Part shown: piece by piece, positions 21,804-49,298 of the stretch
Numbering within the stretch: the first letter of the stretch is position 1
How the letters are laid out: each line of letters opens with the position of its first letter
NCBI RefSeq assembly: GCF_002868735.1
Contig: NZ_CP025613.1
Coordinates: 682,001 to 746,000, forward strand
Source: Niveispirillum cyanobacteriorum
Lineage (GTDB): Bacteria; Pseudomonadota; Alphaproteobacteria; Azospirillales; Azospirillaceae
Direction of reading: 5' to 3'
DNA: 64,000 nt
Notes under the pieces: model-generated
The model's database searches: none
What the model was told of the DNA's origin: nothing
The model's input: the letters and a program-made list of their open reading frames with translations, nothing else
Made by a program: the position numbers and the translations under genes

Positions 21804-22604
21804 TTAGCGCGGCTGTGCCTGGACGGTCCGCACCTTGATCTCCCCACCCGGCACGAAGGTGACGGTGGAGGACTGACCCAAGGCGATGTCATGGATGCCC
21901 GTCACCGCCCCGGTGGTGATCAGGGTGCCTGCCGGCAGGGCAATGCCCCGCGCCCGGCAATGGGCCAGCAGGAAGGCGACCGCCTGGACGGGCGTGCCGG
22001 GGATGCTGGCAAAGCTGCCCGTGCCAACCACCTCACCTTCGATCCGGGTTTCAACGGTCAGGCTTTCAGGCGCCGCATCCTCCCAGCCTTTCAGTTCAGG
22101 CCCAACGATCAGGCCGGCATTATTGCCGAAATCGCTGACCACCACGGTGGGACCCAGCTTGTTGATGGTGGCCAGCGGGCTGCCGGCCAGTTCGATACCG
22201 GCATGGATGGAACCGATCAGGGACTTCGCTTCCGCCTCATCCGAGGGGCCGGTGGCCGGCATATCAGCGCCCAGCTTCACCACGAACTCCCCCTCGACTG
22301 CTGCGAAGCCGCCGGGAATGACGGGCAGGTCGATGACCTGACCCTCACTGTAATCCCATACATTGCCGTCAAACACGGGACCGGCCAGACGCATGGCCCC
22401 CAGTTTCTCCCGGAACGCCGGCGGCACCATGCCAATCTTCCAGCCGCGCACGGGCGTGGGCCACAGAGAGCGTGCCACATCCTGAATATCATAGGACTGG
22501 GTCAGGTGATCGGGGATCGTACCGGGATAATCCGGCAGCGCGGTAGCGGCACGGCGGGCAGCGACAAAACGCTGAGCGATTTCCTGGGCGGTGGACACCG
22601 TCAT
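21804..22604 (-). CDS. 2-keto-4-pentenoate hydratase-like (FAH/MhpD fold) enzyme
   Basis: A 266-residue protein of the MhpD/HpcG/DmpE hydratase and decarboxylase group: SYDIQDVARSLWPTPVRGWKIG, the metal-site Glu in VEGEFVVKLG, and GTLITTGAVTGIHDIALGQS near the C-terminus. Classic members hydrate 2-hydroxypenta-2,4-dienoate in aromatic breakdown. ATG 22604 was chosen; AGGAG is close to it, and an earlier in-frame ATG exists. Although it resembles aromatic-pathway enzymes, it carries one of the TGACACCGGT sites shared by the pectin genes (22645-22659). It could therefore act on a sugar-derived 2-keto-3-deoxy acid (inference). Confidence 0.82.
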   Translation of the reverse strand: MTVSTAQEIAQRFVAARRAATALPDYPGTIPDHLTQSYDIQDVARSLWPTPVRGWKIGMVPPAFREKLGAMRLAGPVFDGNVWDYSEGQVIDLPVIPGGFAAVEGEFVVKLGADMPATGPSDEAEAKSLIGSIHAGIELAGSPLATINKLGPTVVVSDFGNNAGLIVGPELKGWEDAAPESLTVETRIEGEVVGTGSFASIPGTPVQAVAFLLAHCRARGIALPAGTLITTGAVTGIHDIALGQSSTVTFVPGGEIKVRTVQAQPR

Positions 22605-22644: not shown

Positions 22645-22659
22645 TGACACCGGTTTCCA
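22645..22659. promoter_or_regulatory. Candidate LacI operator, site 1
   Basis: TGACACCGGTTTCCA, 41 bp upstream of the hydratase start. It differs by one base from site 2 (TGACACCGGTTACCA read on the minus strand). Confidence 0.7.
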
Positions 22660-22702
22660 TGCAAGGCGGCAGGAGCCGTGGATGAACCCACGGCCCGAAC
22701 CA

Positions 22703-23806
22703 TCAGGCCTTGGGCGGCGCGCTGCTTTCGCGGACCACCAGATGCGGCTGGAAAATCGTCTCGCGTAGCTTGGCGTCGGGCTGCGCGATGCGCTGGATCA
22801 GCTTTTCGGCCGCCACACGGCCCATGTCGCGGACGGGCGAGCGCACCGTTGACAGGGCGGGGCACATGCGCAGCGCCAGCTGACTGTCGTCGAAACCGAC
22901 AACCGTCAGGTCCTGGGGAATGGCGATCCCCTTCTGATAGGCGATGCGATAGACGCCGGCGGCCATTTCGTCGTTACAGGCGAAAATGGCCGTGGGCGGG
23001 TTCGCCATCGACAGCAGCTTTTCAGCGCATTCCTGGCCGCTTTCGAACGTGTAGGCACCCTGCGCCGACAGCTCCGGGTCCAGTGACAGGCCGTGGCGGG
23101 CCAGACCATCGGCAAAGCCACGGCGGCGTTCCTGTGCGGATTTATATTGCGGTGTGCCGGCGATATAGCCGATGCGGCGATGGCCCAGCTCGACCAGATG
23201 ATCGGCCACCTCTGCCGCACCCTTATAATCCTCATACACGACCAGATGGGCAGCGACATCCAGGGGCACGCAGGCGACGCGGATAAAGCGGCAGCCGATT
23301 TCCACCAGCATGGCGGCCAGCGCCTCATCCTCCGACAAGGGCGGCAGCAGGATGACGCCATCCAGCTTCTGCCGCTCCACGAACTGCCGCATCTCCTTCA
23401 TATAGGTCGGGCTGGTGCGGATGCAGGGATGCACGACCAGTTCAAACCCGCTTTTGCGGCAGGCCTCCAGAATACCCGCCTGGACATTCACCACATACTG
23501 GCTGTTGGGATTGTCATAGATGATGCCCAGCAGGAAGGAGCGCTGGGACGCCAATCCGCGCGCCTGGGGGTCCGGCTCATAACCGATATCATCAATGACC
23601 TTGGTGATCTTCTGACGGGTTTCCTCATTCACCAGGGGCGACTGGTTGATGACCCGCGACACGGTTTTCTTCGACACCTCCGCCAGACGGGCCACATCAT
23701 TGATGGTGGGCCGGCGCTTCAGGTCCCAGATATAGGTCTTCGGCGCTTCCGGCTTTTCGGCCTGTTCGGTCACGGCGGCAGCGTCGGCAGTGCGGGCACG
23801 GGGCAT
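22703..23806 (-). CDS. LacI family transcriptional regulator
   Basis: A 367-residue regulator. The HTH and hinge are at about residues 33-85 (PTINDVARLAEVSKKTVSRV, then KVIDDIGYEPDPQARGLA). A periplasmic-binding-protein-like sensor domain follows (LLGIIYDNPNSQYVVNVQAGI, AIFACNDEMAAGVYRIAYQKG, LTVVGFDDSQLALRMCP). About 30 residues precede the HTH, longer than usual, and downstream in-frame starts are possible. It is divergent from the pectate lyase gene, with site 2 between them, and six similar sites lie over 13 kb. It is the obvious candidate regulator of the uronate genes. The inducer is probably KDG or a uronate derivative (inference). Confidence 0.93.
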   Translation of the reverse strand: MPRARTADAAAVTEQAEKPEAPKTYIWDLKRRPTINDVARLAEVSKKTVSRVINQSPLVNEETRQKITKVIDDIGYEPDPQARGLASQRSFLLGIIYDNPNSQYVVNVQAGILEACRKSGFELVVHPCIRTSPTYMKEMRQFVERQKLDGVILLPPLSEDEALAAMLVEIGCRFIRVACVPLDVAAHLVVYEDYKGAAEVADHLVELGHRRIGYIAGTPQYKSAQERRRGFADGLARHGLSLDPELSAQGAYTFESGQECAEKLLSMANPPTAIFACNDEMAAGVYRIAYQKGIAIPQDLTVVGFDDSQLALRMCPALSTVRSPVRDMGRVAAEKLIQRIAQPDAKLRETIFQPHLVVRESSAPPKA

Positions 23807-23845
23807 GGAGGGTGCTGTCCCATTTTGATGTGTTTATCGGCATCA

Positions 23846-23866
23846 ATTGTCCCCCCAGGGGACAAT
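23846..23866. promoter_or_regulatory. Perfect 9-bp inverted repeat upstream of the LacI gene
   Basis: ATTGTCCCC and GGGGACAAT face each other across CCA, 40 bp upstream of the regulator start. It may be a protein-binding palindrome or a 5'-UTR hairpin. It differs from the TGACACCGGT sites, so another regulator is possible. Confidence 0.5.
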
Positions 23867-23974
23867 AAGAATGTACTGCACTGTGCGCCGGGATGGCGCA
23901 ACCCCAAATCCGTCAGGGCGAAAGTTTCGCGGCGTTGGTCTTCCGCTTTTCATTTGCCGAACCCTGATGAATAA

Positions 23975-23989
23975 TGGTAACCGGTGTCA
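23975..23989. promoter_or_regulatory. Candidate LacI operator, site 2
   Basis: TGGTAACCGGTGTCA on the plus strand (TGACACCGGTTACCA on minus), 61 bp upstream of the pectate lyase start and 168 bp upstream of the LacI start. It could control both. Confidence 0.75.
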
Positions 23990-24050
23990 GTTCATGTGTA
24001 AAGACGGTACGCAAAGCTAATACCGCACTCCGTGATATAGGGAGAGCCTG

Positions 24051-25412
24051 ATGAAGATGCGCCCGGCAGCACTTGCTGCCCTGTTGTGCCTGCTGCCCTC
24101 CCTTCCTGCTGCCGCCATCGGCCGCGATGTGGCGCCCGCCGCCATTCCGGCCTTTCCGGGGGCCGAAGGGGCTGGCGCCTATGCCATGGGGGGACGGGGG
24201 GGACGTGTCTTCACCGTTACCAGCCTGGAAGATGCGGGACCGGGCAGCCTGCGCGAGGCGGTGGAGGCCAAGGGGCCGCGCATAGTGGTGTTCGCGGTGT
24301 CGGGGACCATCCAGCTGAAATCCGATCTACGCATCAAGAACGATTTCATCACCATCGCGGGCCAGTCGGCGCCCGGCGGCGGCATCACCTTGCGCGATTA
24401 TCCGCTGATCGTGACGGCCAGCCATGTCGTGATCCGCCATATCCGTTCCCGCCTGGGCAGTGCGGCGGGGCAGGAAGCCGATGCCGTCACGGTCTTTGAT
24501 GGCAAGCACATCATCCTGGACCATGTGTCGGCCAGTTGGTCCACCGATGAAAGCCTGTCGCTGTCCTTCAAATGGAAGGAAGGGATGACGGGGCTGGACA
24601 ATGTGACTGTGCAATGGTCAGTGATCGCCGAGAGCCTGAACAAATCGGTGCATGCCAAGGGCGATCACGGCTATGGCACGCTGGCGCGTGGATCGTTCGG
24701 ATCGCGCTATTCGTTTCACCATAATCTCTGGGCCAGCCACACGGCCCGCATGCCGCGTCCGGGCAATTTTGAGAAGCAGGCCGATGATCCGACCGGCGCC
24801 TTCATGGATTTCCGCAACAATGTCTTCTTCAATTGGAAGGGGACAGGCAAGGGCGGGGCGTCGGGTTATAACGCCGATACGGACGCCGTCACCGCCTACA
24901 ACTTCGTGAACAACTATTATGTGGCGGGATCTGATTCGAAGGGCGCGCACGCCTTTGATGAGAAAAGCCCCGTCGCCAAGGCGTACTTCGCCGGCAATTG
25001 GATGAACCATGCCGAACCAGCGGACCCCTGGTCACTGGTGACAGGTGTGCAGGCCGATGGCTATCGCCAGTCTGCCCCCATCCCGATGGCGGCGGTGACG
25101 ACGGAACCAGCCGATGCTGCCTTTCGCGCGGTTCTGGCCAAGGCGGGGGCGGGGCGCGTGCGCGACAGCGTGGACGAACGGATCACGGCAGGCGTTGCCA
25201 AGGGTGAGGGCCGGATCATCGATAATCAGGATGATGTCGGCGGCTGGCCGGTGCTGGCAGCGGGGGTGTCACCGACCGATAACGACCGGGACGGTATGCC
25301 CGATGCCTGGGAAAAGACCAACGGCCTGAACCCGGCCGATCCGGCGGATGGGGCCACCGACCGCAATGGCGATGGCTACACCAATCTGGAAGAATATCTG
25401 AACGGGTTGTGA
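24051..25412 (+). CDS. Secreted pectate lyase, PL1-type beta-helix
   Basis: A 453-residue secreted protein: Sec signal peptide at residues 1-22, then a right-handed beta-helix. Early blocks are FPGAEGAGAYAMGGRGG and LEDAGPGSLREAVEAKGPR. Further blocks are ITIAGQSAPGGGITLRD, HIILDHVSASWSTDESLS and SFHHNLWASHTARMPRPG. The last has the conserved Arg region of PL1 lyases, which split polygalacturonate by Ca-dependent beta-elimination. The C-terminus (about 408-450) has Asp-rich Ca-binding repeats, DNDRDGMPDAWE and DRNGDGYTNLEEY, as in many PL1 proteins. AGGGAG lies upstream of ATG 24051, and site 2 is in the promoter. It should release unsaturated oligogalacturonides for the TonB receptor. Confidence 0.93.
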   Translation: MKMRPAALAALLCLLPSLPAAAIGRDVAPAAIPAFPGAEGAGAYAMGGRGGRVFTVTSLEDAGPGSLREAVEAKGPRIVVFAVSGTIQLKSDLRIKNDFITIAGQSAPGGGITLRDYPLIVTASHVVIRHIRSRLGSAAGQEADAVTVFDGKHIILDHVSASWSTDESLSLSFKWKEGMTGLDNVTVQWSVIAESLNKSVHAKGDHGYGTLARGSFGSRYSFHHNLWASHTARMPRPGNFEKQADDPTGAFMDFRNNVFFNWKGTGKGGASGYNADTDAVTAYNFVNNYYVAGSDSKGAHAFDEKSPVAKAYFAGNWMNHAEPADPWSLVTGVQADGYRQSAPIPMAAVTTEPADAAFRAVLAKAGAGRVRDSVDERITAGVAKGEGRIIDNQDDVGGWPVLAAGVSPTDNDRDGMPDAWEKTNGLNPADPADGATDRNGDGYTNLEEYLNGL

Positions 25413-25414
25413 CA

Positions 25415-25436
25415 GGGGGCGGGTAACCCCGCCCCC
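25415..25436. terminator. Bidirectional hairpin between the pectate lyase and PepSY genes
   Basis: GGGGGCGGG (25415-25423) and CCCGCCCCC (25428-25436) form a perfect 9-bp stem in the 30-bp convergent gap. It starts 2 bp after the lyase stop and 6 bp from the PepSY stop. Only a short T-run follows (TTAT). Confidence 0.75.
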
Positions 25437-25442
25437 TTATCA

Positions 25443-25970
25443 TCAGCTCTTGTCAGCCATGACCTGACCGGTGGCGCCATCGACGCGGATGGTGCGGGTG
25501 CCATTGCCGTTCAGCACCTCGACCTCATAGGTCAGGCGGTTATTGTCGTGATCAACCTCGGCCTCAATGGCCTTGCCACCGCCCTTATTCTCCGCGATGC
25601 CGATGGCCTGCGCCAGGCTGGTGGAGGCGGCAGTCAGTTCGCGCGGCTCCACGCCCGCACCTAGCTGCTGTGCCCAGGTGGCCAGGGTCTGCTTGTCAGC
25701 CGATGCGATCTTGCCGTTGGAGGCATCGACATCCCAGCGGGTCACCGTCTCGCCCGACACGATGTCGATCTGGTACAGGCCGACGCTGTTCTTGGTGTCG
25801 AAATCGACATCCACCGCCTTGCCCTTGCCCTGCTGTTCAGCCTGGGCGATGGCCTGGGTCAGGGAAACCTTGGCCTGACGGAAGGCGGCGATGTCGCTGT
25901 CGGAGCTGGCGGCCAACGCCGGAGCGGCCAGGATCAGGGACAGGGCGGCAGTGCCGAGAAGCATCTTCAT
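25443..25970 (-). CDS. Secreted protein with two PepSY domains
   Basis: A 175-residue protein. ATG 25970 (MKMLLGTAALSLILAAPALA) is preferred because GGAGG lies 9 nt upstream; an ATG at 25979 overlaps that site. A Sec signal peptide ends after ALA. Two tandem repeats follow, each of PepSY type: SLTQAIAQAEQQGKGKAVDV with VTRWDVDASNGKI, and SLAQAIGIAENKGGGKAIEA with RTIRVDGATGQV. PepSY domains inhibit peptidases or serve as periplasmic modulators. It is convergent with the pectate lyase gene and 86 bp upstream of no partner enzyme, so its role is open. Confidence 0.88.
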   Translation of the reverse strand: MKMLLGTAALSLILAAPALAASSDSDIAAFRQAKVSLTQAIAQAEQQGKGKAVDVDFDTKNSVGLYQIDIVSGETVTRWDVDASNGKIASADKQTLATWAQQLGAGVEPRELTAASTSLAQAIGIAENKGGGKAIEAEVDHDNNRLTYEVEVLNGNGTRTIRVDGATGQVMADKS

Positions 25971-26056
25971 GGTTTGCATCCTCCGGTTAGTGGATGCAGC
26001 CTTAACGATACCACCCTGCCCCTGGTTCCGGGCTTACCCCGTTTGAGGCGTTGGTG

Positions 26057-26698
26057 TTAGAGGCCAGGCTTCGCGAACCCTGCCGCAGCGCGGGCATTTT
26101 CGGTGATGCCGGCCCAGTCGCCATCCGCGATCTGCTTGTTGGTGGCGATCCAGGAGCCGCCGACGCCGACCACATTCTTCAGCGCTAGGTATGACGCGAC
26201 CTTGTCGCGACCGATGCCACCCGTGGGGCAGAAGCGGGCCTGCGGCAGGGGGGCGGCCAGGGCGGCGATGGTGGCAGCACCACCATATTGTTCCGCCGGG
26301 AACAGCTTCAGCACCTCAAACCCGTCATCCAGACGTTCCAGCACCTCGCTGGGCGTGGCCACGCCGGGGATGACCGGCACGCCACAGGCCTTGAGCGGGG
26401 CCACCAGGGCCGCCGTCGTGGCCGGGGTTACGATGAAATCCGACCCCGCCGACATGGCGGCATCCAGGTCCGACGGCTTCAGGATGGTGCCGGCACCCAC
26501 GATCAGGCCGGGCACGGCCCGCTTCATGGCGGTGATGGCGTCAAGGGCGGCGGGCGTGCGTAAGGTCACCTCCACCACCGACAGGCCACCCTCATTCAGG
26601 GCCACGGCCAGGGGTGGGGCATCCTCCACCCTTTCGATGGTCAGGACCGGAATGACGGGCGAGCTTTTCAGCAGCAGGGCGAAGGCCTGGATATTCAC
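26057..26698 (-). CDS. eda: 2-dehydro-3-deoxy-phosphogluconate (KDPG) aldolase
   Basis: A 213-residue class I aldolase that splits KDPG into pyruvate and glyceraldehyde-3-phosphate. Diagnostic blocks are PVIPVLTIE, the catalytic Glu in VVEVTLRT, GAGTILKPSDLDAAMSAG, SDFIVTPATT, the Schiff-base Lys in FEVLKLFPAE, and PTGGIGRDKVASYL. Length is typical of Eda. Candidate operator 3 lies 104 bp upstream. It completes the uronate route with KDG kinase (30023-31042) and would also serve Entner-Doudoroff flux. Confidence 0.96.
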   Translation of the reverse strand: MNIQAFALLLKSSPVIPVLTIERVEDAPPLAVALNEGGLSVVEVTLRTPAALDAITAMKRAVPGLIVGAGTILKPSDLDAAMSAGSDFIVTPATTAALVAPLKACGVPVIPGVATPSEVLERLDDGFEVLKLFPAEQYGGAATIAALAAPLPQARFCPTGGIGRDKVASYLALKNVVGVGGSWIATNKQIADGDWAGITENARAAAGFAKPGL

Positions 26699-26724
26699 GT
26701 CGGTGGGCTCCCATCAACAGGAAA

Positions 26725-26752
26725 ACGGCCCCGCCTGTGCCGGTGGGGCCGT
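26725..26752 (-). terminator. Hairpin with T-run between the TonB receptor and eda genes
   Basis: ACGGCCCC (26725-26732) and GGGGCCGT (26745-26752) form an 8-bp stem; on the minus strand it is followed by TTTTCC. It is 134 bp after the receptor stop and 27 bp before the eda start, so transcripts entering from upstream, including from site 3, would meet it first. Confidence 0.65.
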
Positions 26753-26801
26753 GATGAGGTCGGAACAGGAAATCAAGGCAATACCGGAGGCGATGATGCA
26801 T

Positions 26802-26816
26802 TGCCACCGGTTTCCA
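26802..26816. promoter_or_regulatory. Candidate LacI operator, site 3
   Basis: TGCCACCGGTTTCCA, one base different from site 1, placed 104 bp upstream of the eda start. Confidence 0.65.
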
Positions 26817-26845
26817 CGCCGGGCCGCGATGCGACCCCGTGGGGT

Positions 26846-26875
26846 CTCCCCCCGGCCCTGTTGGGCTGGGGGGAG
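26846..26875 (-). terminator. GC-rich hairpin after the TonB receptor gene
   Basis: CTCCCCCC (26846-26853) and GGGGGGAG (26868-26875) enclose an inner GCCC/GGGC pair set and a TGTT loop. It is 10 bp after the receptor stop on the minus strand. There is no T-run; the T-run hairpin at 26725-26752 may complete termination. Confidence 0.6.
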
Positions 26876-26885
26876 TGGCGGGTCA

Positions 26886-29759
26886 TCAGTACTTGTACTT
26901 GGCACCCAGGAAGAACTGGCGGCCATAATGCACATATTCTTCGGAGTTCTGGCGGGTGCTGGTACCGACCCAGCGCTCGTCAAACTCGTCGGTCAGGTTG
27001 ATGGCTTCAAACGTCACCGAGATCTGCTCGGAGAAGTTATAGCTGGCCGAGAAGTCCAGGTTGAAGGTCGAGGCCTTGCCACGGATGTCGTTGGCGTTGC
27101 CGGGCGAGATCTGGGTCAGATACTCGTCACGGAAGGAGCCGGAGACGCGGGCGCTGAAATCGTCGTTCTCATAGTACAGAGTGGCGTTGAACGACTTAGG
27201 TGACAGACCGACCAGCGGCTCGCGCACGGTGCGGGTGCCAACGCGATAGTCGATGTCCGACGTCACATAGGTGAAGTTGGCGATACCACCGAAATCATCA
27301 AATGGCGCCGGCAGGAAGGTGAACGGCTTCTGCACGGAGATTTCGAAGCCCTTCAGCGGGCCGCCCTTGGTGTTGCCAGCACGCGTGATGGTGAAGATAC
27401 TGTCCATCGTGTTGCCGTTGGCCAGCAGGCTTTCCGGCAGGCCGGTCTCACGGAAGGGAATGGTCTCGGAGATGTTCTGGATGTAGCTCTTGATGTCCTT
27501 GTAGAACAGCCCGACCGACACCAGCGTTTCCTTCTCCGGATACCATTCGAAGGACAGATCGACGGTATTGGCGCGGATCGGGTTCAGGTAGGGGTTGCCG
27601 CTGCTCAGCGTCTGGTTGGCGTTGGTGATCGAACCACCGGGCGTCAGCTGCGGCAGGTCGGGACGCGACATCACCTTGGCAGCGCCGAAGCGGACCAGGA
27701 AATCATCAATCGGTTCCAGCGACAAGTTGAGCGCCGGCAGCGTGTCATCATATTCACGCTCCACGGTCGCCAGCGTGGTGCCGACATAGCCGGTGGAGGT
27801 CAGCTTGGTCTTCACCTGACGGACACCGACATTACCCCGGAACGGCATACCCGCCAGTTCGGTGTTGAAATCGGCCTGGACAAAGGCGCTGAGGCTGCGT
27901 TCACGCGCCTGACGGTTGCTGCCGATGGCACCCTGGCCATCCTTGGCAACGCGGAAGTCACCATACTGGTTGACGCAATTGCAGTAGAAGCCCAGCAGTT
28001 CCTCGAACTTGTCGATTGAGGGCACGATCCAGGCGGTGGGCGTGCCGTTCGGAACGCTCAGGTGACGACCGAAGCCCGACACCAGTTCCGTGAGGCTGGC
28101 GAGGTTGGTGCCAGCCGGCAGGGGCACGGCGGCCTCGGTCAGGTTGCCAGTTCCCTGGATCGGGTCCAGCGTGCCGTAACGGCGCCATTCCTGGGTCTTG
28201 AACTTGTAATCCTTGTGGGCCAGACCGGCCTTCAGGGTCACCCAATCCTGGGCATCCCACTCAAACTCGCCCCGGAAGGTCTGGAAATCATTATTCGTCT
28301 TGTTGGGACGAATACGGATCAGCGACTGGTCACCAATGACGGCGCCGTTGCGGACCAGACGGGTCGACGGGCTGAAGACATAGTTGGCCGGGTTGGTGAC
28401 GTCGAAACCGTAATTAAAGGCCGGCAGGTTCTTGTTGCCGGAATAGTCATAGCTGTAGCCCTGGACATTATAGGCTTCCAGCGACAGGGTCGTCTGTTCC
28501 GGATTGTCCTGCACCGAGGAGGACCAGCCGGCAATACCCTTGAACCGGATCGTATCGGTGAATTCCTGATCCAGATTGAAGGAATATTGCAGGAATTCAG
28601 TCTGCAGGCGGTCGCGGCGCTGTTCGGTGCGGATATCGACGCCGTTGAAGGTGCCCTTGATCAGATTGCCCAGATCATCATAGGTGGCCTGGGTGACGGT
28701 GGTGCCGCCCATGCCGCCAGCGCCGGTGTTGCGGCTGAAGGAGATGGCTTCCAGATACTGTTCCTGGCGCGTGCCCTTCAGATCGGCATAGAGGCCATCC
28801 AGCGTGATGCGCGTGGTTTCAAAAGGCTGGAACTGCAAAGCGGCGGTGGCGCCCAGGCGTTCCTGATCGTAATCCAGACGGCCATAGCGCGGGATGCGCG
28901 GGTGCCAGGCCGACTGTTCAGGCAGGGCGCGGTTGCCCGGCGTGTTGGACGCACCACCGCCGCCAAACAGGAAGTTGGCGGTAGCACTGCCATTGCCGCT
29001 GGCGGGAATGGTGCCGATCGTGTCGATGCCGCGTTCCCAACGGCCCGTGGAGGAACCTTCCTCCAGACGGTTGGTCTCCGAATAGGCGACAGAGAACAGA
29101 GCGCCGATCTTGCCATCCGCGAAGGTGTCGGAGATCAGCAGGGTGCCGCGCGGGTCCTTCGACTTGGACAGGTCGTTGTAACCGATCTTGCCCGAAGCGG
29201 AGAAAACGAACTTGTTATAGTCGAACGGGCGGGCCGTCTGCAGGTCGACGGTGGCGCCAAGCGAGCCTTCTTCGGTCTGGGCCGAGGTGGATTTGCGCAC
29301 CGTCAGGCTGTTGAACAGCTCCGACGCGAAAATCTGGAAGTCGAAGCCGCGGCCACGGTTGGCGCCGCCCGACCCATCCTTGCCGCCCGTGGTGGCCAGG
29401 GCTTCCAGCCCGTTCAGCCGCACGCGGGTGAAGGTGGAGGACAGACCGCGCACCGTGATCGAACGGCCCTCGCCGCCATCGCGGTCGATGGAGACGCCGG
29501 GAATACGCTGCAGCGATTCGGCCAGATTGGTATCCGGGAACTTGCCGATATCTTCGGCATTGATGACATCAACGATGTCATTCTCGTTCCGCTTCTTGTT
29601 GATGGCGCTGGCCAGCGAGCCACGGAAGCCCGTAACCACGATTTCTTCCAGGGCTTCCTGTGCCTGCGCACCCGCAGGGATCAGGCCGGCTAGCAGGACC
29701 AGAGCCGAGGCGCCGGCGAGACGGCGGCGGATGCAGGGCGTACCCGCGAACTTCATCAT
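26886..29759 (-). CDS. TonB-dependent outer-membrane receptor, Caulobacter-type
   Basis: A 957-residue receptor. ATG 29759 was chosen (second ATG at 29756) behind GGAAGGAAG; the longer frame lacks a signal. A signal peptide ends at about residue 33 (AQAQ). A TonB-box-like EEIVVTGFRGSLASAI follows, then the plug (NDIVDVINAEDIGKFPDTNL, ESLQRIPGVSIDRDGGEGR), then a 22-strand barrel ending in KYKY. This plug type is common in carbohydrate uptake by Caulobacter and Xanthomonas relatives. It is divergent from KDG kinase with operators 4 and 5 between, and convergent in role with the pectate lyase, so oligogalacturonides are the likely cargo. TonB/ExbBD are not in the window. Confidence 0.93.
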   Translation of the reverse strand: MMKFAGTPCIRRRLAGASALVLLAGLIPAGAQAQEALEEIVVTGFRGSLASAINKKRNENDIVDVINAEDIGKFPDTNLAESLQRIPGVSIDRDGGEGRSITVRGLSSTFTRVRLNGLEALATTGGKDGSGGANRGRGFDFQIFASELFNSLTVRKSTSAQTEEGSLGATVDLQTARPFDYNKFVFSASGKIGYNDLSKSKDPRGTLLISDTFADGKIGALFSVAYSETNRLEEGSSTGRWERGIDTIGTIPASGNGSATANFLFGGGGASNTPGNRALPEQSAWHPRIPRYGRLDYDQERLGATAALQFQPFETTRITLDGLYADLKGTRQEQYLEAISFSRNTGAGGMGGTTVTQATYDDLGNLIKGTFNGVDIRTEQRRDRLQTEFLQYSFNLDQEFTDTIRFKGIAGWSSSVQDNPEQTTLSLEAYNVQGYSYDYSGNKNLPAFNYGFDVTNPANYVFSPSTRLVRNGAVIGDQSLIRIRPNKTNNDFQTFRGEFEWDAQDWVTLKAGLAHKDYKFKTQEWRRYGTLDPIQGTGNLTEAAVPLPAGTNLASLTELVSGFGRHLSVPNGTPTAWIVPSIDKFEELLGFYCNCVNQYGDFRVAKDGQGAIGSNRQARERSLSAFVQADFNTELAGMPFRGNVGVRQVKTKLTSTGYVGTTLATVEREYDDTLPALNLSLEPIDDFLVRFGAAKVMSRPDLPQLTPGGSITNANQTLSSGNPYLNPIRANTVDLSFEWYPEKETLVSVGLFYKDIKSYIQNISETIPFRETGLPESLLANGNTMDSIFTITRAGNTKGGPLKGFEISVQKPFTFLPAPFDDFGGIANFTYVTSDIDYRVGTRTVREPLVGLSPKSFNATLYYENDDFSARVSGSFRDEYLTQISPGNANDIRGKASTFNLDFSASYNFSEQISVTFEAINLTDEFDERWVGTSTRQNSEEYVHYGRQFFLGAKYKY

Positions 29760-29882
29760 TGCTTCCTTCCCCTTCAGATTTATCGTTCTGGCCGCACCGA
29801 TCCAGCCCGCAGCCGGAACGGCAAGCAGGGGGTAGGACGAACGATTTAGGTCTTTATACCAGTCGTCAGAGCCGGTAGGCGT

Positions 29883-29896
29883 TGACACCGGTGACA
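29883..29896. promoter_or_regulatory. Candidate LacI operator, site 4
   Basis: TGACACCGGTGACA, between the divergent TonB-receptor and KDG-kinase genes, centred 34 bp from site 5. Confidence 0.7.
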
Positions 29897-29916
29897 GGGC
29901 TATTAATGATCCGATC

Positions 29917-29930
29917 TGACACCGGTGGCA
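29917..29930. promoter_or_regulatory. Candidate LacI operator, site 5
   Basis: TGACACCGGTGGCA, the second of two sites in the 263-bp divergent spacer. The 34-bp centre spacing (about three helical turns) would let two dimers bind one face or form a tetramer. Confidence 0.7.
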
Positions 29931-30022
29931 ATACGTTTTTGCATTGAGATGTCCAAGTTCGTCACAGGATGTGGCACAAATCCCGCAGTAGGCGGATTTG
30001 CAAGGTGGAAGGGAGAGACCCG

Positions 30023-31042
30023 ATGACCGGGCGTATCGTGTGTTTTGGTGAATTGCTGATGCGCCTGACGGCGCCGGGCCGGGAAATGCTGCTGCAAAGC
30101 CCGCGCCTGGACGTCACCTTCGGCGGGGCGGAAGCCAATGTCGCCGTGTCGCTGGCCCGATTCGGCTGGGATGCCGCCGTTGTCTCAACCCTGCCCGACC
30201 AGGGCATTGGCGAGGCCTGCCGGGGCGAACTGCGCCGTCATGGCATCGACACGCGTGGCATTCAGATGCGCCATGGCCGCATGGGCCTGTATTTCCTGAC
30301 CGTCGGGGCCATGCAACGCCCATCGGAGATCATCTATGACCGCGCCGGGTCCGCCTTTGCAGTGACGGAGGCCGGTGCCTATGACTGGCCCACGCTGCTG
30401 AAGGGTGCCGAATGGCTGCATGTTGGCGGCATTACGCCCGCTGTTAGCGAAGAGGCGGAGAAGGCCGTGGTCGCGGCGGCGGAGGCAGCCAAGGCGGCCG
30501 GCGTCAAGGTATCGTTCGACTGTAATTACCGTGCGAAGCTGTGGGCCGACCGGGGCGGCGATGCACCGGCGGTGTTCGCCAAACTGGCGTCGTGCGCCGA
30601 CCTGATGTTCGGGAATGAGCGCGACATCGCTCTGATCCTGGGTGCTGATTTCCATGCTCTTCCCCTGTCGGAGCGGTTCCTGGCAGCGGCGGAACTGGCC
30701 TTCAAGACCTGGCCAGGTCTGAAATGGTTGGCTTCCACGATCCGCACCCATCATGACGTGGACCATCAGGAACTGACGGGCCGTGTCGCCGCGCGGGACC
30801 ACCGGGTACACTATTCGCGCACTTACAAGCTGAACGGCATCATCGACCGCATCGGCGGCGGCGACGCCTTTGCGGCCGGCCTGATCCATGGGCTGGATAA
30901 GGGCTGGGCCGCCGATCAGGCCATCAACTTCGCCGCTGCTGCTGCCGCTCTGAAACACTCCGTCCCCGGCGATGCCAATCTGGTATCGGTGGCCGACGTC
31001 ATGAGCCTGGTGAATGAGGAAGGGCTGGATGTGAAGCGGTGA
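30023..31042 (+). CDS. kdgK: 2-dehydro-3-deoxygluconokinase (PfkB family)
   Basis: A 339-residue ribokinase-fold sugar kinase that phosphorylates KDG to KDPG. ATG 30023 (MTGRIVCFGELLMRLTAPG) has GGGAGAG upstream. The N-terminal FGGAEANVAVSLARFG is the PfkB glycine-rich signature, and the C-terminal DRIGGGDAFAAGLIHGL carries the catalytic Asp in GGGDAF. SFDCNYRAKLW is the KdgK-type substrate block. It is divergent from the TonB receptor, and its product is the substrate of the eda gene product. It ends in a hairpin (31039-31057). Confidence 0.93.
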   Translation: MTGRIVCFGELLMRLTAPGREMLLQSPRLDVTFGGAEANVAVSLARFGWDAAVVSTLPDQGIGEACRGELRRHGIDTRGIQMRHGRMGLYFLTVGAMQRPSEIIYDRAGSAFAVTEAGAYDWPTLLKGAEWLHVGGITPAVSEEAEKAVVAAAEAAKAAGVKVSFDCNYRAKLWADRGGDAPAVFAKLASCADLMFGNERDIALILGADFHALPLSERFLAAAELAFKTWPGLKWLASTIRTHHDVDHQELTGRVAARDHRVHYSRTYKLNGIIDRIGGGDAFAAGLIHGLDKGWAADQAINFAAAAAALKHSVPGDANLVSVADVMSLVNEEGLDVKR

Positions 31043-31057
31043 GGGCCCTGCCCTCAC
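31039..31057 (+). terminator. Hairpin at the end of kdgK
   Basis: GTGAGGGC and GCCCTCAC form a perfect 8-bp stem with a CCT loop; the stop codon TGA is inside the first arm. A weak T-run (CCTTTC) follows. Confidence 0.55.
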
Positions 31058-31181
31058 CTCCTTTCACTTGATCCCGAAGCCATGCACGCCGCGCAGTCTT
31101 GCCCCGGCGCGGCCCCCGGGTGGCGCAAAAGTCGCTGCGCAACTATATTACGCCCATCGAAAACAACGATGGAGACACATC

Positions 31182-31277
31182 ATGCGGTACTTTTTCCTGC
31201 TTCCTATGCTGCGGCTCGGTGCTTTTTCCCGTTATGCCGCTTCGGTTGAGCAGTACCCGGCCAACCGCCGTGATTGA
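31182..31277 (+). CDS. Candidate 31-residue leader peptide upstream of agmatine deiminase
   Basis: GGAGA lies 7 nt before ATG 31182, which opens 31 codons ending at TGA 31277. The peptide starts MRYFFLLPMLRLGAFSRYAA and is basic, with a hydrophobic N-terminal half. It is followed 100 bp later by a hairpin with TTTT (31377-31408) and then by the deiminase start at 31445. The order short ORF, terminator, gene is that of an attenuator. It shows no run of a single amino-acid codon except Phe-Phe-Leu-Leu and scattered Arg. It may instead be a small membrane peptide, or not translated. Apart from this, the kdgK hairpin and the terminator, I see nothing in 31043-31444. Confidence 0.4.
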   Translation: MRYFFLLPMLRLGAFSRYAASVEQYPANRRD

Positions 31278-31376
31278 GGCGGAAAGGCCTGCTTCTTTTA
31301 GCAGTTCCCATTTTTACCTCTGACCAAAAATCATCAGCTGGCCACTTTCATTTGACCGGCATGGTTGTCATGACAG

Positions 31377-31408
31377 CGCCCTGGCGGGTACCCTCGCCGG
31401 GGCGTTTT
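31377..31408 (+). terminator. Terminator or attenuator hairpin upstream of aguA
   Basis: CGCCC-T-GGCG and CGCC-G-GGGCG pair over 10 bp (one T-G pair) around an 8-nt loop, followed by TTTT. It stands 36 bp before the agmatine deiminase start. The palindrome TGTCATGACA (31366-31375) touches its 5' side. Confidence 0.7.
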
Positions 31409-31444
31409 CATGTCTGGCCCATCGCAGAACCCAAGGATCGCATC

Positions 31445-32458
31445 ATGACCCATCCCGCCGCCGAAGGCTTTTTCATGCCCGCCGAATGGGCGCCGCATGC
31501 GCGCTGCTGGATGGCGTGGCCGGTGCGGGAGGAGACGTTCCCCAATGGCCTGCCCGCTGCCCGCGCCGCCTATGCCGAGGTGGCGAAGGCCATTGCGCAG
31601 TTCGAACCGGTGACCATGCTGTGCCCGGACGGGGCGCTGGCCGATGTGTCGCTGGCCTGTGGGCCCGGCGTGTCGGTACTGCCGGTGCCCTGTTCCGACA
31701 GCTGGCTGCGCGATAACGCGCCCAGCTTTGTCGTCAACGGCAAGGGCGATGTGGCCGGCGTGCATTGGGGCTTCAATGCCTGGGGCCGGAACTATGAAGA
31801 CTTTCAACTGGATACACAGGTGGGGCGCCTGATCCTGGAGAACCAGGGGCTGAAGCGGTTCGCGGCCCCGCTGGTGATGGAGGGCGGGTCCTTCCATGTC
31901 GATGGCGAGGGTACCCTGCTGACGACCGAGGAATGCCTGCTGAACCCCAACCGCAACCCGCATCTGTCGCGCGGCGAGATTGAGGCGCATCTGGCATCGC
32001 ATCTGGGCGTGCGGGAATTCATCTGGCTGAACAAGGGCTATGAGCAGGATGAAACCGACGGCCATATCGATGAGATCGCAGCCTTCGTGAAGCCGGGCGT
32101 GGTTCTGACCATGGTCACCGACGATACGTCGGACCCGAACTATCCCGTGTTTCAGGACAATGTCGCCCGGCTGAAGGCCGCGCGCGACGCGGCAGGCCGG
32201 ACGCTGGAGGTCGTGACCCTGCGCACGCCGGCGCGTCAGGAACAGCATGGCGTGCGCCTGACCCTGTCCTACACCAACTTCTACATGGCCAATGGCGGCA
32301 TCGTCATGCCGCTGTTCGAAGACCCGATGGATGCCGAGGCCATCAGCCTGTTCGGCAAGCTGTTCCCCGACCGCAAGATCATCCCCGTGCCGGCCCTGGA
32401 CATCGTGCGCGGCGGCGGCGGTATCCACTGCATCACACAGCAGCAGCCGGCGGCGTAA
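31445..32458 (+). CDS. aguA: Agmatine deiminase
   Basis: A 337-residue guanidino-group-modifying enzyme that hydrolyses agmatine to N-carbamoylputrescine and ammonia. Motifs are EWAPHARCWMAWP near the N-terminus, CSDSWLRDNAPSFV, DETDGHIDEIAAFV (catalytic His and acids), and the nucleophile Cys in GGGGIHCITQQQP near the C-terminus. ATG 31445 (MTHPAAEGFFMPAEW) fits family starts; the open frame upstream crosses the terminator hairpin. AguB, the next enzyme in putrescine formation, is not in the window. The gene sits between kdgK and the sugar ABC genes, an unusual place. Confidence 0.95.
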   Translation: MTHPAAEGFFMPAEWAPHARCWMAWPVREETFPNGLPAARAAYAEVAKAIAQFEPVTMLCPDGALADVSLACGPGVSVLPVPCSDSWLRDNAPSFVVNGKGDVAGVHWGFNAWGRNYEDFQLDTQVGRLILENQGLKRFAAPLVMEGGSFHVDGEGTLLTTEECLLNPNRNPHLSRGEIEAHLASHLGVREFIWLNKGYEQDETDGHIDEIAAFVKPGVVLTMVTDDTSDPNYPVFQDNVARLKAARDAAGRTLEVVTLRTPARQEQHGVRLTLSYTNFYMANGGIVMPLFEDPMDAEAISLFGKLFPDRKIIPVPALDIVRGGGGIHCITQQQPAA

Positions 32459-32531
32459 GCCAAGGGCCATGACTTGGCCGTTGGAGGCCGGCGACTGCCG
32501 GCCCGCCGCACGTACGGCGTAAGCCAAGGGC
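32451..32531. repeat. 17-bp direct repeat spanning the aguA stop
   Basis: CGGCGTAAGCCAAGGGC occurs at 32451-32467 (includes the TAA stop of aguA) and exactly again at 32515-32531. Between the copies is a 7-bp hairpin GGCCGGC-GACT-GCCGGCC. The unit may be a small duplication. Confidence 0.75.
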
Positions 32532-32571
32532 GCGTATGCGCCCGCCTGGCGTTTGAAGGGATATGTAAAGT

Positions 32572-33444
32572 TCACCCCTTCACCGAGCCCGACGTGATGC
32601 CCTCGACGAAATATTTCTGCGCCAGGAAGAAGACGATCAGCGAGGGCAGCAGGGCGATGGTGGACATGGCCAGGACCTGGTTCCAGGCCGTAGCCTCCGT
32701 CACATCGATGGCCATTTTCAGCGCCAGGGCCACGGGGTATTTGCCCACCGACGACAGGTAGATCAGGGGATAGAGGAAGTCGTTCAGGCTCCACATGAAC
32801 TGGAACAATGCTACGGAGATGATGGCCGGCATGATCACCGGCACGACCACATGCCACAGCACCTGCAACGAGTTGCAGCCATCGATGACGGCCGCTTCCT
32901 CCATATCCGGCGGAATCCCGCGCAGGAACTGCACCACCATGAAGACGAAGAAGCCGTCGGTAGCAAAGGCACAGGGCACATAAAGCGGCAGATAGGTGTC
33001 CAGCCAGCCGAATTCCCGAAACATCAGATATTGCGGGATCAGCAGCACACTTTTCGGCAGCAGGATGGTCGCCACCATCAGCGCAAACCATAGCTGCTTG
33101 CCCGGCATGCGGAACCGCGCGAAGCCGAAGGCCACCAGCACAGACGACACCACCGTTAGCACCACCTTCGGGATGATGAAGGCGAAGCTGTTCAGCAGGT
33201 AGGTCGCGAAGCTGTATTCCGTGCCGGTGCGCCAACCCTTCACCACCCCATCCATGGTTGGATCCTGCGGCCAAAGGCTGACAGATCCGAAAATTTCATG
33301 ATTGGGCTTGAAGCTGGCGGCCACCATCCAGAACAGGGGATACAGCATGATCAGCCCCACCCCGATCAGCACGCCATAGCGCAGCAGGGCACTGAAACGG
33401 CCGAACCAGGCGACATCGCGGCGGGGTGCTGTGATCAGGCTCAT
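32572..33444 (-). CDS. Carbohydrate ABC transporter permease, MalG-like
   Basis: A 290-residue inner-membrane subunit with six predicted helices. The EAA loop reads IPPDMEEAAVIDGCNSLQVLWHV, followed by VPVIMPAIISVALFQFMWSLND, as in MalG/UgpE/TogN proteins; it ends KYFVEGITSGSVKG, the standard C-terminus of this family. Its start overlaps the stop of the partner permease by 4 bp. With the partner and the ATPase upstream it makes a CUT1 importer. The locus suggests oligogalacturonide or uronate as cargo. Confidence 0.92.
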   Translation of the reverse strand: MSLITAPRRDVAWFGRFSALLRYGVLIGVGLIMLYPLFWMVAASFKPNHEIFGSVSLWPQDPTMDGVVKGWRTGTEYSFATYLLNSFAFIIPKVVLTVVSSVLVAFGFARFRMPGKQLWFALMVATILLPKSVLLIPQYLMFREFGWLDTYLPLYVPCAFATDGFFVFMVVQFLRGIPPDMEEAAVIDGCNSLQVLWHVVVPVIMPAIISVALFQFMWSLNDFLYPLIYLSSVGKYPVALALKMAIDVTEATAWNQVLAMSTIALLPSLIVFFLAQKYFVEGITSGSVKG

Positions 33445-34334
33445 TCCCCATCCTCCCGCTCATTACCGTAGAAGACCCAGTATTTGGCGGATGCGAAAGC
33501 GATGATAGTGAACAGCGCGATGATGAGGAACAGGACCCAGGAGAGGGCGGCGGCATAACCGACATTGAAGTACTTGAACGCTTCCTCATAGATCATCAGG
33601 GGCAGCAGGTAGGTAGATTTCAGCGGACCGCCGCCGGTGATGATGTAGGGGCCGTTGAATTCCTGAAATGCCTGCACGATCTGCATGATGAAATTGAAAA
33701 AGATGACGGGCGTCAGCAATGGCAGGGTGATGGTGAAGAAAATGCGGGCCTTGCCGGCCCCGTCGATGGTCGCCGCCTCATACAGGTCGGTGGGGATGTT
33801 CTGCAGCCCCGCCAGGAACACCACCATGGCCGACCCGAATTGCCAAAGGCGCAGCAGGACAACGGTGAACAGAGCATAGGCGGGTTCACCCAGCCAGTTC
33901 AGCGGCTCCCCCCCGGCCCAGACCAGCACCTGATTGATCAGCCCGTCGCCAGCAAAGACGTAGCGCCACAGAACGGCGATGGCGACCGATCCGCCCAGGA
34001 TGGAAGGCACGTAATAGGCAGTGCGGAAAAAGCCGATGCCCCGCAGCTTGAAGTTCAAAACAAAGGCGATGAACAGGGCGAAGGCCAGTTTCAGGGGCAC
34101 GGTGATGAACACATAGAGGAAGGTGACACCCAGCGAGCCATGGAACGTGTCATCCCCCGCCATCTGCGTGTAATTGCCCAGGCCCAGGAATCGCGCCTGC
34201 TCCACCGGGTCCTGCAGCTGATAGTCCGAAAAGGACAGCAGGAAGGATGCCAGGAAAGGAAACAGGGTGAAGGTCGCCAGACCGATCAGGAAGGGCGCGA
34301 TGTAGAGATAGCCGGAGACGCGGTTGTCATACAT
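33441..34334 (-). CDS. Carbohydrate ABC transporter permease, MalF/UgpA-like
   Basis: A 297-residue permease with six helices: SGYLYIAPFLIGLATFTLFPFLAS at the N-terminus, FFRTAYYVPSILGGSVAIAVLW in the middle, and the EAA loop IPTDLYEAATIDGAGKARIF. It is 12 bp after the ATPase gene and overlaps the MalG-like gene. It resembles LacF/TogM-type proteins of CUT1 systems. Confidence 0.92.
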   Translation of the reverse strand: MYDNRVSGYLYIAPFLIGLATFTLFPFLASFLLSFSDYQLQDPVEQARFLGLGNYTQMAGDDTFHGSLGVTFLYVFITVPLKLAFALFIAFVLNFKLRGIGFFRTAYYVPSILGGSVAIAVLWRYVFAGDGLINQVLVWAGGEPLNWLGEPAYALFTVVLLRLWQFGSAMVVFLAGLQNIPTDLYEAATIDGAGKARIFFTITLPLLTPVIFFNFIMQIVQAFQEFNGPYIITGGGPLKSTYLLPLMIYEEAFKYFNVGYAAALSWVLFLIIALFTIIAFASAKYWVFYGNEREDGE

Positions 34335-34346
34335 GGGCCGGCCCCC

Positions 34347-35489
34347 TCACGCCGCCACGACGGCGCGCGCCGCCGGTTCACCCACGGCGCGGCCATCGGC
34401 GTCAAACAGGTGGCATTGCGCCAGACGGACGCCCACGCGCAGACCGGTGCCGATGCGCAGCGGCACATCGCCCGCGATCTTCACGACCAACACCCCATCA
34501 GACAGCGACGGCATGCGCAGATGCGCCAATGTTTCCCCACCCAGACGTTCCACCAGATCGATGATGGCGTCAAACTCCACCGCCTGTCCATCGTCACCGT
34601 CCACCGGCGTAGGGCCGACACGGAAATGTTCGGGCCGGATGCCAACGGTAACCTTGGCGCCCGGCTTTACCGCCGCGTCATGGCGAGGCAGGCGCAGGGT
34701 GGCGCCGTTCAGGCGCACGCTCACGCTGTCGGTTTCCACCGCCTCCACGATCCCATCCATGAAGTTCATGCGGGGGGAACCGATGAAGCCGGCCACGAAG
34801 AGGTTGGCGGGGTGACGGTACAGGTCGATGGGCGCGCCGATCTGTTCGATCCGCCCGGCATTCAGTACCACGATGCGGGTGGCCAGCGTCATTGCCTCCA
34901 CCTGATCATGGGTCACATAGATCATGGTGGCGCCCAGCTTGGCATGCAGGCGCGCGATCTCCACCCGCATCTGGCCACGCAGGGCCGCATCCAGATTGGA
35001 CAGGGGTTCGTCGAACAGAAACACTTCCGGTTCGCGCACGATGCAGCGGCCAATGGCGACCCGCTGCCGCTGCCCGCCCGACAGGGCGCGCGGCTTGCGG
35101 TCCAGCAATGGGGTCAGTTGCAGAATCTCCGCCGCCTTGGCTACCTTTTCCTTGATCAGGGGTTTGGGCAGGCCCGCGATCTTCAGGCCGAAACCCATAT
35201 TTTCGGCCACGCTCATATGCGGGTACAGCGCGTAGGATTGGAACACCATGGCGATTCCGCGTTCAGACGGATGAACCAGGGTGACATCGCGGTCGCCGAT
35301 CATGATCGACCCGCGGGTGGGCAGTTCCAGGCCCGACACCAGACGCAGCAAGGTGGACTTGCCGCAGCCCGATGGCCCGACAAACACCGTCAGTTCCCCC
35401 GGTGCGATTTCCAGGTCCACGCCCTTGATCACATCGACGGCGCCAAAGCATTTTGTTACCCCGCGCAGCAGTACCCGACCCTTGGCCAC
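34347..35489 (-). CDS. Sugar ABC transporter ATP-binding protein, UgpC/MsmK type
   Basis: About 380 residues: a nucleotide-binding domain with Walker [10 protein letters not shown], signature [13 protein letters not shown], Walker [14 protein letters not shown] and switch [13 protein letters not shown], then a C-terminal TOBE/OB regulatory domain ([11 protein letters not shown]). The GTG at 35489 is preferred because GGGGAGGGGG lies directly before it and it gives the usual short leader; GTG 35549 would add 20 residues. It is the first gene of the ABC run and is divergent from altronate dehydratase across operator 6. No binding protein gene accompanies it in the window. Confidence 0.9.
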
Positions 35490-35567
35490 GCCCCCTCCCC
35501 TGCTTTTATCGGTGGTCGCCCCTTCGGCGATGTCAGCCTTGGATGCCACCTGTCCTCTTGATCTATC

Positions 35568-35582
35568 CGGTAACCGGTGTCA
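35568..35582. promoter_or_regulatory. Candidate LacI operator, site 6
   Basis: CGGTAACCGGTGTCA on plus, 14 of 15 bases identical to site 2, in the spacer between the ABC ATPase (GTG 35489) and altronate dehydratase (ATG 35654). Confidence 0.75.
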
Positions 35583-48960: not shown

Positions 48961-49298
48961 CATCGCCACTTTAAGTTCGGCGATGAATCGACATGCCCTC
49001 ATTGATATTGAGGCACCCAACATACATCCGTCTGATATGTAAACGGCCCACGAACAGGGCAGGTGAGACCGGTGTCAAGCGCCACCCCCTACTTTAGTCG
49101 CCTGGAAGTCATCTTAACGGTTTCGAGATTTATCTGTTGCAAGCTGTCCAGGCGTGGTTAGGCTACGCACCTGAGACAGGGTGCCGCAGGGTTACCGCTA
49201 TCGAGGGTCCCCGGATGGGTGTCCGCCGGGGTTGGGTTCAAAGGTTTGAGCGCCGTCCAACGTGGGGATGGTGGCTTGGTTGAAAGGGGACGTTCACA
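48961..49298. other. 338-bp intergenic region upstream of phaZ
   Basis: No gene recognised. It holds the near-palindrome TGAGACCGGTGTCA (49064-49077), which shares its minus-strand TGACACCGGT core with the uronate operators. The phaZ promoter should lie in the second half. Confidence 0.5.
49064..49077. promoter_or_regulatory. Isolated TGACACCGGT-like site
   Basis: TGAGACCGGTGTCA; minus-strand reading TGACACCGGTCTCA. It is 221 bp upstream of phaZ and far from the uronate genes, so membership in that regulon is doubtful. Confidence 0.4.

What the first reader, a model, noticed from the sequence alone, without database searches (positions are those of the whole stretch)
22645..35582. Six matching LacI-type operators define one uronate/pectin regulon
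TGACACCGGT or a one-base variant occurs at 22645, 23975, 26802, 29883, 29917 and 35568. The sites stand before the hydratase, pectate lyase, eda, TonB receptor/kdgK (two sites) and ABC/uxaA genes. The strongest pairs (sites 1/2, 1/3 and 2/6) differ by one base over 15. All lie in intergenic DNA of one metabolic locus that also encodes a LacI regulator. CG-centred palindromes are typical of LacI proteins. The whole gene set from polymer cutting to KDPG cleavage thus appears to be under one regulator.
Basis: partly seen in the sequence, partly recalled or inferred. Interest (0 to 1): 0.78.

Follow-up and report, generated by a model that had tools for sequence, protein, structure and literature searches.

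The report
One repressor's switches for pectin eating
A bacterium related to Niveispirillum appears to control its genes for eating pectin, a plant cell-wall polymer, with one repressor protein and one short DNA word placed before genes across its genome; this is a new case of a well-known kind of switch.

Summary
The motif is TGACACCGGTNNCM. In the 6.05 Mb genome it occurs 19 times (backwards control 0); 17 are intergenic. Sites outside the window precede uxaC (kduI and kduD follow), a family 10 pectate lyase, pectinesterase, GH95, GH88, an MFS transporter and TonB receptors; a one-base variant precedes a TRAP binding protein. ExbB-type loci carry none (0 of 6).

The regulator is very probably the LacI protein at 22703-23806. 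Within the family, uxaC promoters carry the site in 18 of 18 genomes with a LacI ortholog and 0 of 45 without. Distant relatives with the same recognition-helix pair (SKK), in Lysobacter, Sphingomonas and Erythrobacter among others, keep sites (58 of 62 loci); relatives without it have none (0 of 16).

Unexpected: two operator words. TonB-receptor promoters carry a symmetric one (23 of 29 sites), catabolic promoters an asymmetric one (75 of 87). Repression, and KDG as inducer, are inferred; binding was not tested. A new member of a known kind.

The parts
22703..23806 (-). LacI-family regulator, recognition helix VSKKTVSRVIN
   Evidence: Pfam LacI and Peripla_BP_3; SKK unique among 17 LacI proteins of the genome
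22645..22658 (+). operator 1, TGACACCGGTTTCC, before the hydratase-like gene
   Evidence: same place in L100, L102, L106 and others
23976..23989 (-). operator 2, TGACACCGGTTACC, between lacI and pel
26802..26815 (+). operator 3, TGCCACCGGTTTCC, before eda
   Evidence: kept in L095, L100, L102
29883..29896 (+). operator 4, TGACACCGGTGACA, TonB receptor/kdgK; overlaps the -35 of a promoter-like match
29917..29930 (+). operator 5, TGACACCGGTGGCA, 34 bp from operator 4
   Evidence: spacing 34-35 bp recurs in relatives
35569..35582 (-). operator 6, TGACACCGGTTACC, between abcK and uxaA
   Evidence: kept in L094, L100, L102
29882..29910 (+). sigma-70-like promoter match TTGACA-17-AATGAT towards kdgK
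   Evidence: 1 found, 0.2 expected
21804..22598 (-). hydratase-like protein, FAA-hydrolase superfamily
   Evidence: PF01557 7.4e-8; distant matches to 4-oxalocrotonate decarboxylase
24051..25412 (+). pectate lyase-like protein (Pel)
   Evidence: NCBIfam PelZ 7.2e-50, below the curated cut-off
26057..26698 (-). eda, KDPG aldolase
   Evidence: PF01081 5.5e-63; TIGR01182 above cut-off
26886..29759 (-). TonB-dependent receptor
   Evidence: PF00593, PF07715; start
30023..31042 (+). kdgK-like PfkB sugar kinase (start 29969 or 30023)
   Evidence: PF00294; KDG-kinase-type models, below cut-offs
32572..35549 (-). ABC transporter: two permeases and ATPase, no binding protein in the block
   Evidence: PF00528 twice, PF00005
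35654..37186 (+). uxaA, altronate dehydratase (510 aa)
   Evidence: PF20629, PF04295, PF08666; start
37186..38637 (+). uxaB-like mannitol-dehydrogenase-family protein
   Evidence: PF01232, PF08125

Best explanation
The sites are operators of the LacI-family protein encoded at 22703-23806. A dimer binds the 14-bp CG-centred site TGACACC|GGTNNCM. From 17 intergenic 14-mers plus one-base variants at eda and dctP (19 sites, up to 17 promoter regions, of which the one at 49064 and the one near the L048 receptor are doubtful) it holds down receptors, secreted lyases and esterases, transporters and cytoplasmic enzymes of pectin and uronate use. At the TonB receptor/kdgK pair one operator overlaps the -35 box of a promoter-like match and a second sits 34 bp away, so repression by blocking RNA polymerase is the likely mode. 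The inducer is most likely 2-keto-3-deoxygluconate (KDG) or a close intermediate, because the controlled routes meet there. Shown by sequence: site positions, genome-wide placement, conservation, co-occurrence with this LacI and its SKK pair. Inferred: binding, repression, inducer.
For: Placement: 17 of 19 14-mers intergenic (binomial P 7e-16 at 9.6% intergenic). Targets: UxaC with KduI and KduD downstream, PL10, pectinesterase, GH95, GH88, MFS, DctP, GDSL esterase, TonB receptors. Regulator: 18 of 18 against 0 of 45 uxaC promoters (Fisher 4e-16), and 6-19 against 0-6 motif hits per genome in 19 and 63 genomes with and without the ortholog. SKK unique among 17 LacI proteins of the genome. 58 of 62 SKK-type loci but 0 of 16 other loci carry sites. 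94 of 98 sites in 55 distant loci intergenic. Mode: the one sigma-70-like match in 29740-30060 has its TTGACA in operator 4 (0.2 expected).
Against: No binding or expression data. The genomes with the ortholog fall in 3 of 13 genera of the family, so the counts are not independent. SKK-type proteins as one clade are only weakly supported (64/74; one origin in 70% of bootstrap trees). Four of 62 SKK loci lack a site in the fetched flanks, five by the stricter TGACAC pattern. 13 of 35 own 10-mers are coding. Two genus g11 genomes have a second SKK-type paralog without sites within the fetched 20 kb (L103, L104). No site at ExbB loci. The looser pattern TGNNACCGGTNNCM is not enriched over its reversed control (70 against 90), so only the TGACAC half carries the signal.
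Confidence: 0.87

Rival explanations
1. Another regulator of the genome binds the sites, for example the IclR protein beside the pectinesterase gene or another LacI paralog, and the window LacI is a bystander.
For: 16 other LacI proteins with a readable helix exist; an IclR gene lies in the pectinesterase locus; genus g11 has a second SKK-type LacI.
Against: No other LacI of the genome has SKK; sites and window-LacI orthologs come and go together and adjoin in distant bacteria. I did not test the co-occurrence of the IclR gene.
Confidence: 0.08
2. The conserved word is a core promoter element (a -35 TTGACA in a preferred context) rather than an operator.
For: At operator 4 the TTGACA hexamer fits a promoter match; at uxaC the word points the same way in 11 of 11 single-target sites.
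Against: Orientation is mixed at other genes (hydratase-like 4 forward, 5 reverse); the second half of the site is also conserved; the word is missing from uxaC promoters of 45 relatives without the LacI.
Confidence: 0.03
3. Two regulators share the sites: the window LacI acts on the asymmetric word, and a second protein on the symmetric word at receptor promoters.
For: The two words split by target and are discrete.
Against: Symmetric sites also stand at loci of the ortholog in several genera; no candidate second protein was identified.
Confidence: 0.12

Closest known systems
LacI-family sugar-acid regulons from comparative genomics (groups ExuR, KdgR, UxaR, UxuR in Ravcheev et al. 2014, PMC4052901; passages seen)
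   Same: LacI protein, CG-centred even palindrome, sites upstream of start codons, control of galacturonate/glucuronate use.
   Different: The passage seen places UxaR, UxuR and KdgR in Bacteroides; orthology with the present group was not tested, and the RegPrecise database was not available, so the same regulog may already be listed there.
Enterobacterial KdgR pectin regulon (IclR family; recalled)
   Same: One repressor over pectate lyases, transporters and the KDG pathway, with KDG as inducer (recalled).
   Different: The window protein is LacI family, so it works alike but is not a member; the operators were not compared.
UxuR2, a LacI-family regulator of uronate loci in Algoriphagus marincola (PMC5507952, passage seen)
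   Same: LacI regulator over galacturonate/glucuronate loci with a TRAP transporter.
   Different: Bacteroidota; operator and orthology not compared.

Membership tests
LacI-family transcription factor | N-terminal LacI helix-turn-helix and C-terminal periplasmic-binding-protein-like domain | tested here: met
   PF00356 1.8e-17 at 34-79, PF13377 5.6e-43 at 201-362; nearest solved chain by sequence 5ysz_A 5.7e-47
LacI-family operator | even palindrome with central CG | tested here: met
   centre is CG in ACCGGT; 35 of 185 intergenic sites have a symmetric right half, 124 an asymmetric TWCC right half, 26 other
[quoted passage not shown]
   uxaC 35-120, kduI 23-141, hydratase-like -11 to 151 bp; TonB receptors 42-280 bp, often beyond 140; starts are approximate
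LacI-family regulon | direct binding and a sugar-type effector | not testable with these tools
   needs an experiment
Named NCBIfam LacI regulators (RbsR, CytR, PurR, CcpA, GntR, GalR and others) | score above the curated cut-off | tested here: not met
   18 families match, none over its cut-off; best RbsR 203 bits against 382
KdgR of the IclR family | IclR domains | tested here: not met
   no IclR match in the window protein
LacI groups KdgR/UxaR/UxuR/ExuR of RegPrecise | orthology and shared motif | not tested
   database not available; only passages of the paper seen

The most novel reading that the evidence does not exclude
One LacI regulator, kept from Azospirillaceae to Lysobacteraceae and Sphingomonadales, reads two discrete operator words: a symmetric one (TGACACCGGTGNCA), sometimes doubled 34-35 bp apart, at TonB-receptor promoters, and an asymmetric one (TGACACCGGTTWCC) at catabolic promoters. 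The two words would set different thresholds, so that receptors and pathway enzymes respond at different inducer levels.
Probability: 0.35. Interest if true: 0.6.

Novelty: new member of a known kind. Interest (0 to 1): 0.42.

Why it matters
It gives a nearly complete, testable regulon for pectin use in this genus and its relatives, linking genes on three contigs of the genome. It proposes a partner binding protein for an orphan ABC transporter and marks a hydratase-like gene of unknown role as a recurrent regulon member in Alpha- and Gammaproteobacteria. The two operator words, if they differ in affinity, would show how one repressor separates uptake from catabolism.

Tried and rejected
Chance or coding-DNA scatter: rejected for the TGACAC motif. 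The looser pattern TGNNACCGGTNNCM is not above its reversed control (70 against 90), so I do not use it as evidence.

exbBD as regulon members: rejected; 0 of 6 ExbB-type loci with 1.5 kb flanks carry a site. ExbD genes were not searched apart.

A canonical site directly before the orphan binding-protein gene: not found. Only GGTAACCGATTTCC stands there, which I do not count.

Hydratase-like protein as a stand-in for KdgF: dropped, since a small cupin that could be KdgF follows kduD in a Lysobacter locus (L124) that also has the hydratase-like gene. A Cupin_3 search of the own genome gave one match, not examined further.

Asymmetric word explained by promoter direction: forward in 11 of 11 single-target uxaC sites and 15 of 17 kduI sites, but mixed at the hydratase-like gene (4 forward, 5 reverse).

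Seventh site (49064): present in 6 of 6 recR-side regions, own included, in a form with another left half (TGAGACC), and not in the loci fetched from the 5 other genomes of the genus, where only shorter pieces matched. Left unassigned.

Literature: ten full-text searches listed no paper that, by title and start of abstract, treats this regulator or motif. In one search, 45 papers held the letters and 25 were listed; none was opened. Two papers were opened, PMC4052901 and PMC5507952, passages only. A search of plasmid records gave no match.

Faulty or weak steps: one search skipped loci through its pattern and one search did not turn minus-strand loci; both are replaced. One search used 49 hand-picked LacI rows of those held, and its clade-test line failed. 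The gene caller is my own script with approximate starts; sites up to 45 bp inside a predicted start count as intergenic. The 9.6% intergenic fraction comes from the window and 33 fetched stretches, most chosen around hits. In one search one uxaC promoter per genome was read; for G018 it was the second UxaC match, and the first (L186) was read and has no site either; the extra, partial UxaC matches of G033 and G037 were not read. Motif hits are strand hits, so a perfect palindrome counts twice. Group labels, including the name given to genus g11, are mine.
Full report
OBSERVATION. The six sites are in the sequence at the stated places. The window holds 16 matches to TGACACCGGT with up to one mismatch against 4.19 +/- 2.12 in shuffles, whose largest value was 9. 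A further exact 10-mer lies at 49068-49077. The motif extends to 14 bases, TGACACCGGTNNCM. In the whole genome the exact 10-mer occurs 35 times against 4 for the reversed control, and the 14-mer 19 times against 0. The looser TGNNACCGGTNNCM is not enriched (70 against 90).

GENOME-WIDE PLACEMENT. I fetched 33 stretches of the own genome, most of them around hits, and called genes with a codon-usage script. Of the 19 14-mers, 17 are intergenic, counting operator 6 as such; 9.6% of the sampled DNA is intergenic. The two coding ones are L033:5731 and L043:8534. Of the 35 10-mers, 22 are intergenic and 13 coding. Outside the window the 11 intergenic 14-mers stand by a GDSL esterase with partial similarity to pectin acetylesterase PaeY (L042); a TonB receptor and a divergent LamG protein (L043); a family 10 pectate lyase, two sites (L045); uxaC (L051); GH95 and, separately, pectinesterase (L055); a carboxylesterase (L026); an MFS transporter and a GH88 (L032); and, 172 bp away and with the weaker right half GGCC, another TonB receptor (L048). 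uxaC is followed by genes that pass the curated cut-offs for KduI (NF002091, 405 bits against 250) and KduD (TIGR01832, 409 against 339). A one-base variant, TGATACCGGTTACC, precedes the TRAP binding protein dctP in L032. The GH95 gene is followed by GDSL, GH43 and PelZ-like genes, and the pectinesterase gene by a TonB receptor and an IclR regulator.

THE REGULATOR. The genome has the window LacI and 16 other LacI proteins with a readable helix; an eighteenth, weak match lacks one. Only the window protein has the recognition pair SKK before TVSR. In 82 genomes of the family, 19 hold an ortholog (best match 56% identity or more): 11 in the own genus, the own genome included, 7 in genus g11 and 1 in genus g6. 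The 14-mer count is 6-19 in those 19 and 0-6 in the other 63 (Mann-Whitney P 2e-11). Of 63 genomes with UxaC, the 18 with the LacI ortholog all have the site within 700 bp upstream (501 read in one), and the 45 without it have none (466 bp read in one). The 18 cluster by phylogeny, so the P values overstate independence.

DISTANT RELATIVES. A scan of named genomes gave 79 loci, several of them the same genomes as above. 62 have SKK; 58 of these have at least one listed site in the locus, 57 by the strict TGACAC pattern; L113, L121, L134 and L135 have none. 16 lack SKK and have none; one locus (L167) is a fragment without the helix and has one site. SKK loci include Lysobacter, Arenimonas, Sphingomonas, Erythrobacter and Paraglaciecola. 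In 55 of these loci 94 of 98 strict sites are intergenic; the nearest downstream genes are most often the hydratase-like gene (27), kduI (18), a PelZ-like gene (orf437, 13), lacI (11), Pel (8), and 27 genes that my labels do not name. In both Sphingomonadales-type loci scanned for it (L141, L163) the kduI place holds an RpiB-like isomerase, and in L163 an alginate-lyase family gene follows kdgK. Pectin, uronate and alginate routes meet at KDG (pathway knowledge, recalled), which is my reason for preferring it as inducer.

OPERATOR GRAMMAR. Among 185 intergenic 10-mer sites of the own, near and far loci, 124 end in T(A/T)CC and 35 in a symmetric form ending CA, 26 in other words; positions 11 and 14 are coupled (124, 2, 3, 35; own genome alone 8, 0, 1, 8). 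TonB-receptor sites are 23 symmetric, 3 asymmetric, 3 other; catabolic-gene sites are 3, 75 and 9. The split holds in the own genome, g6, g11, the own genus (one receptor site asymmetric) and the Hyphomonadaceae locus. Sphingomonadales are mixed (receptors 3 symmetric, 2 asymmetric, 2 other), and the Lysobacteraceae group has no receptor sites in the sample. Sites were found by their shared left half, so operators without TGACAC are missed, and related loci are counted apart. Of 17 site pairs closer than 200 bp, 8 are 34-35 bp apart, several of them orthologous.

MODE OF ACTION. The promoter scan of 29740-30060 finds one sigma-70-like match, TTGACA-17-AATGAT at 29882-29910, against 0.2 expected; its first hexamer lies in operator 4, and operator 5 follows it. 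This fits a repressor that blocks polymerase. Only this promoter region was scanned. Operators lie mostly some 30-170 bp before start codons; for LacI sites in general 30-140 bp is reported (PMC4052901, passage).

The regulon is not one locus. ExbB-type loci have no site (0 of 6). The binding protein for the ABC transporter is probably L032:12275-13579: its relative lies in the ABC operon of G068 (71% identity over 417 residues). No canonical site precedes it in the own genome.

IDENTITY OF THE ORGANISM. The window's LacI is 99% identical to those of a Niveispirillum metagenome bin and of strain AAP38, so the window is from that genus or very near it; the species is not established.

VERDICT. 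A LacI-controlled pectin/uronate regulon, strongly supported by comparative evidence, without binding data. It is a new member of a known kind; the two operator words are the part worth a specialist's time.

Noticed in passing
window 49064-49077: A seventh site between recR and a PHB-depolymerase gene, kept as TGAGACCGGT(G/A)TCA in 6 of 6 such regions of the genus (own included) while the flank on its recR side diverges; perhaps another LacI protein's operator.
   Followed up: partly
window 21804-22598: The hydratase-like gene (FAA-hydrolase superfamily) recurs behind these operators in Alpha- and Gammaproteobacteria; its role in uronate use is unknown.
   Followed up: partly
L163:7240-7872 and L141:7090-7728: An RpiB-like isomerase (PF02502 with DUF3666) takes the place of kduI behind the operator.
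   Followed up: partly
L103:9663-10793 and L104:10029-11216: Second SKK-type LacI paralogs (about 60% identity) in two genus g11 genomes, beside an MFS gene and without sites in the fetched 20 kb.
   Followed up: no
L032:13620-14516: A class A beta-lactamase gene (NF033103, 318 bits against a cut-off of 200) directly upstream of the orphan sugar-binding-protein gene.
   Followed up: no
L055:16719-17498: An IclR regulator next to the pectinesterase and TonB-receptor genes, a possible second layer of control.
   Followed up: no
window 31445-32458: A PAD_porph-family gene (PF04371) lies inside the locus between kdgK and the ABC genes; no site at its start.
   Followed up: no
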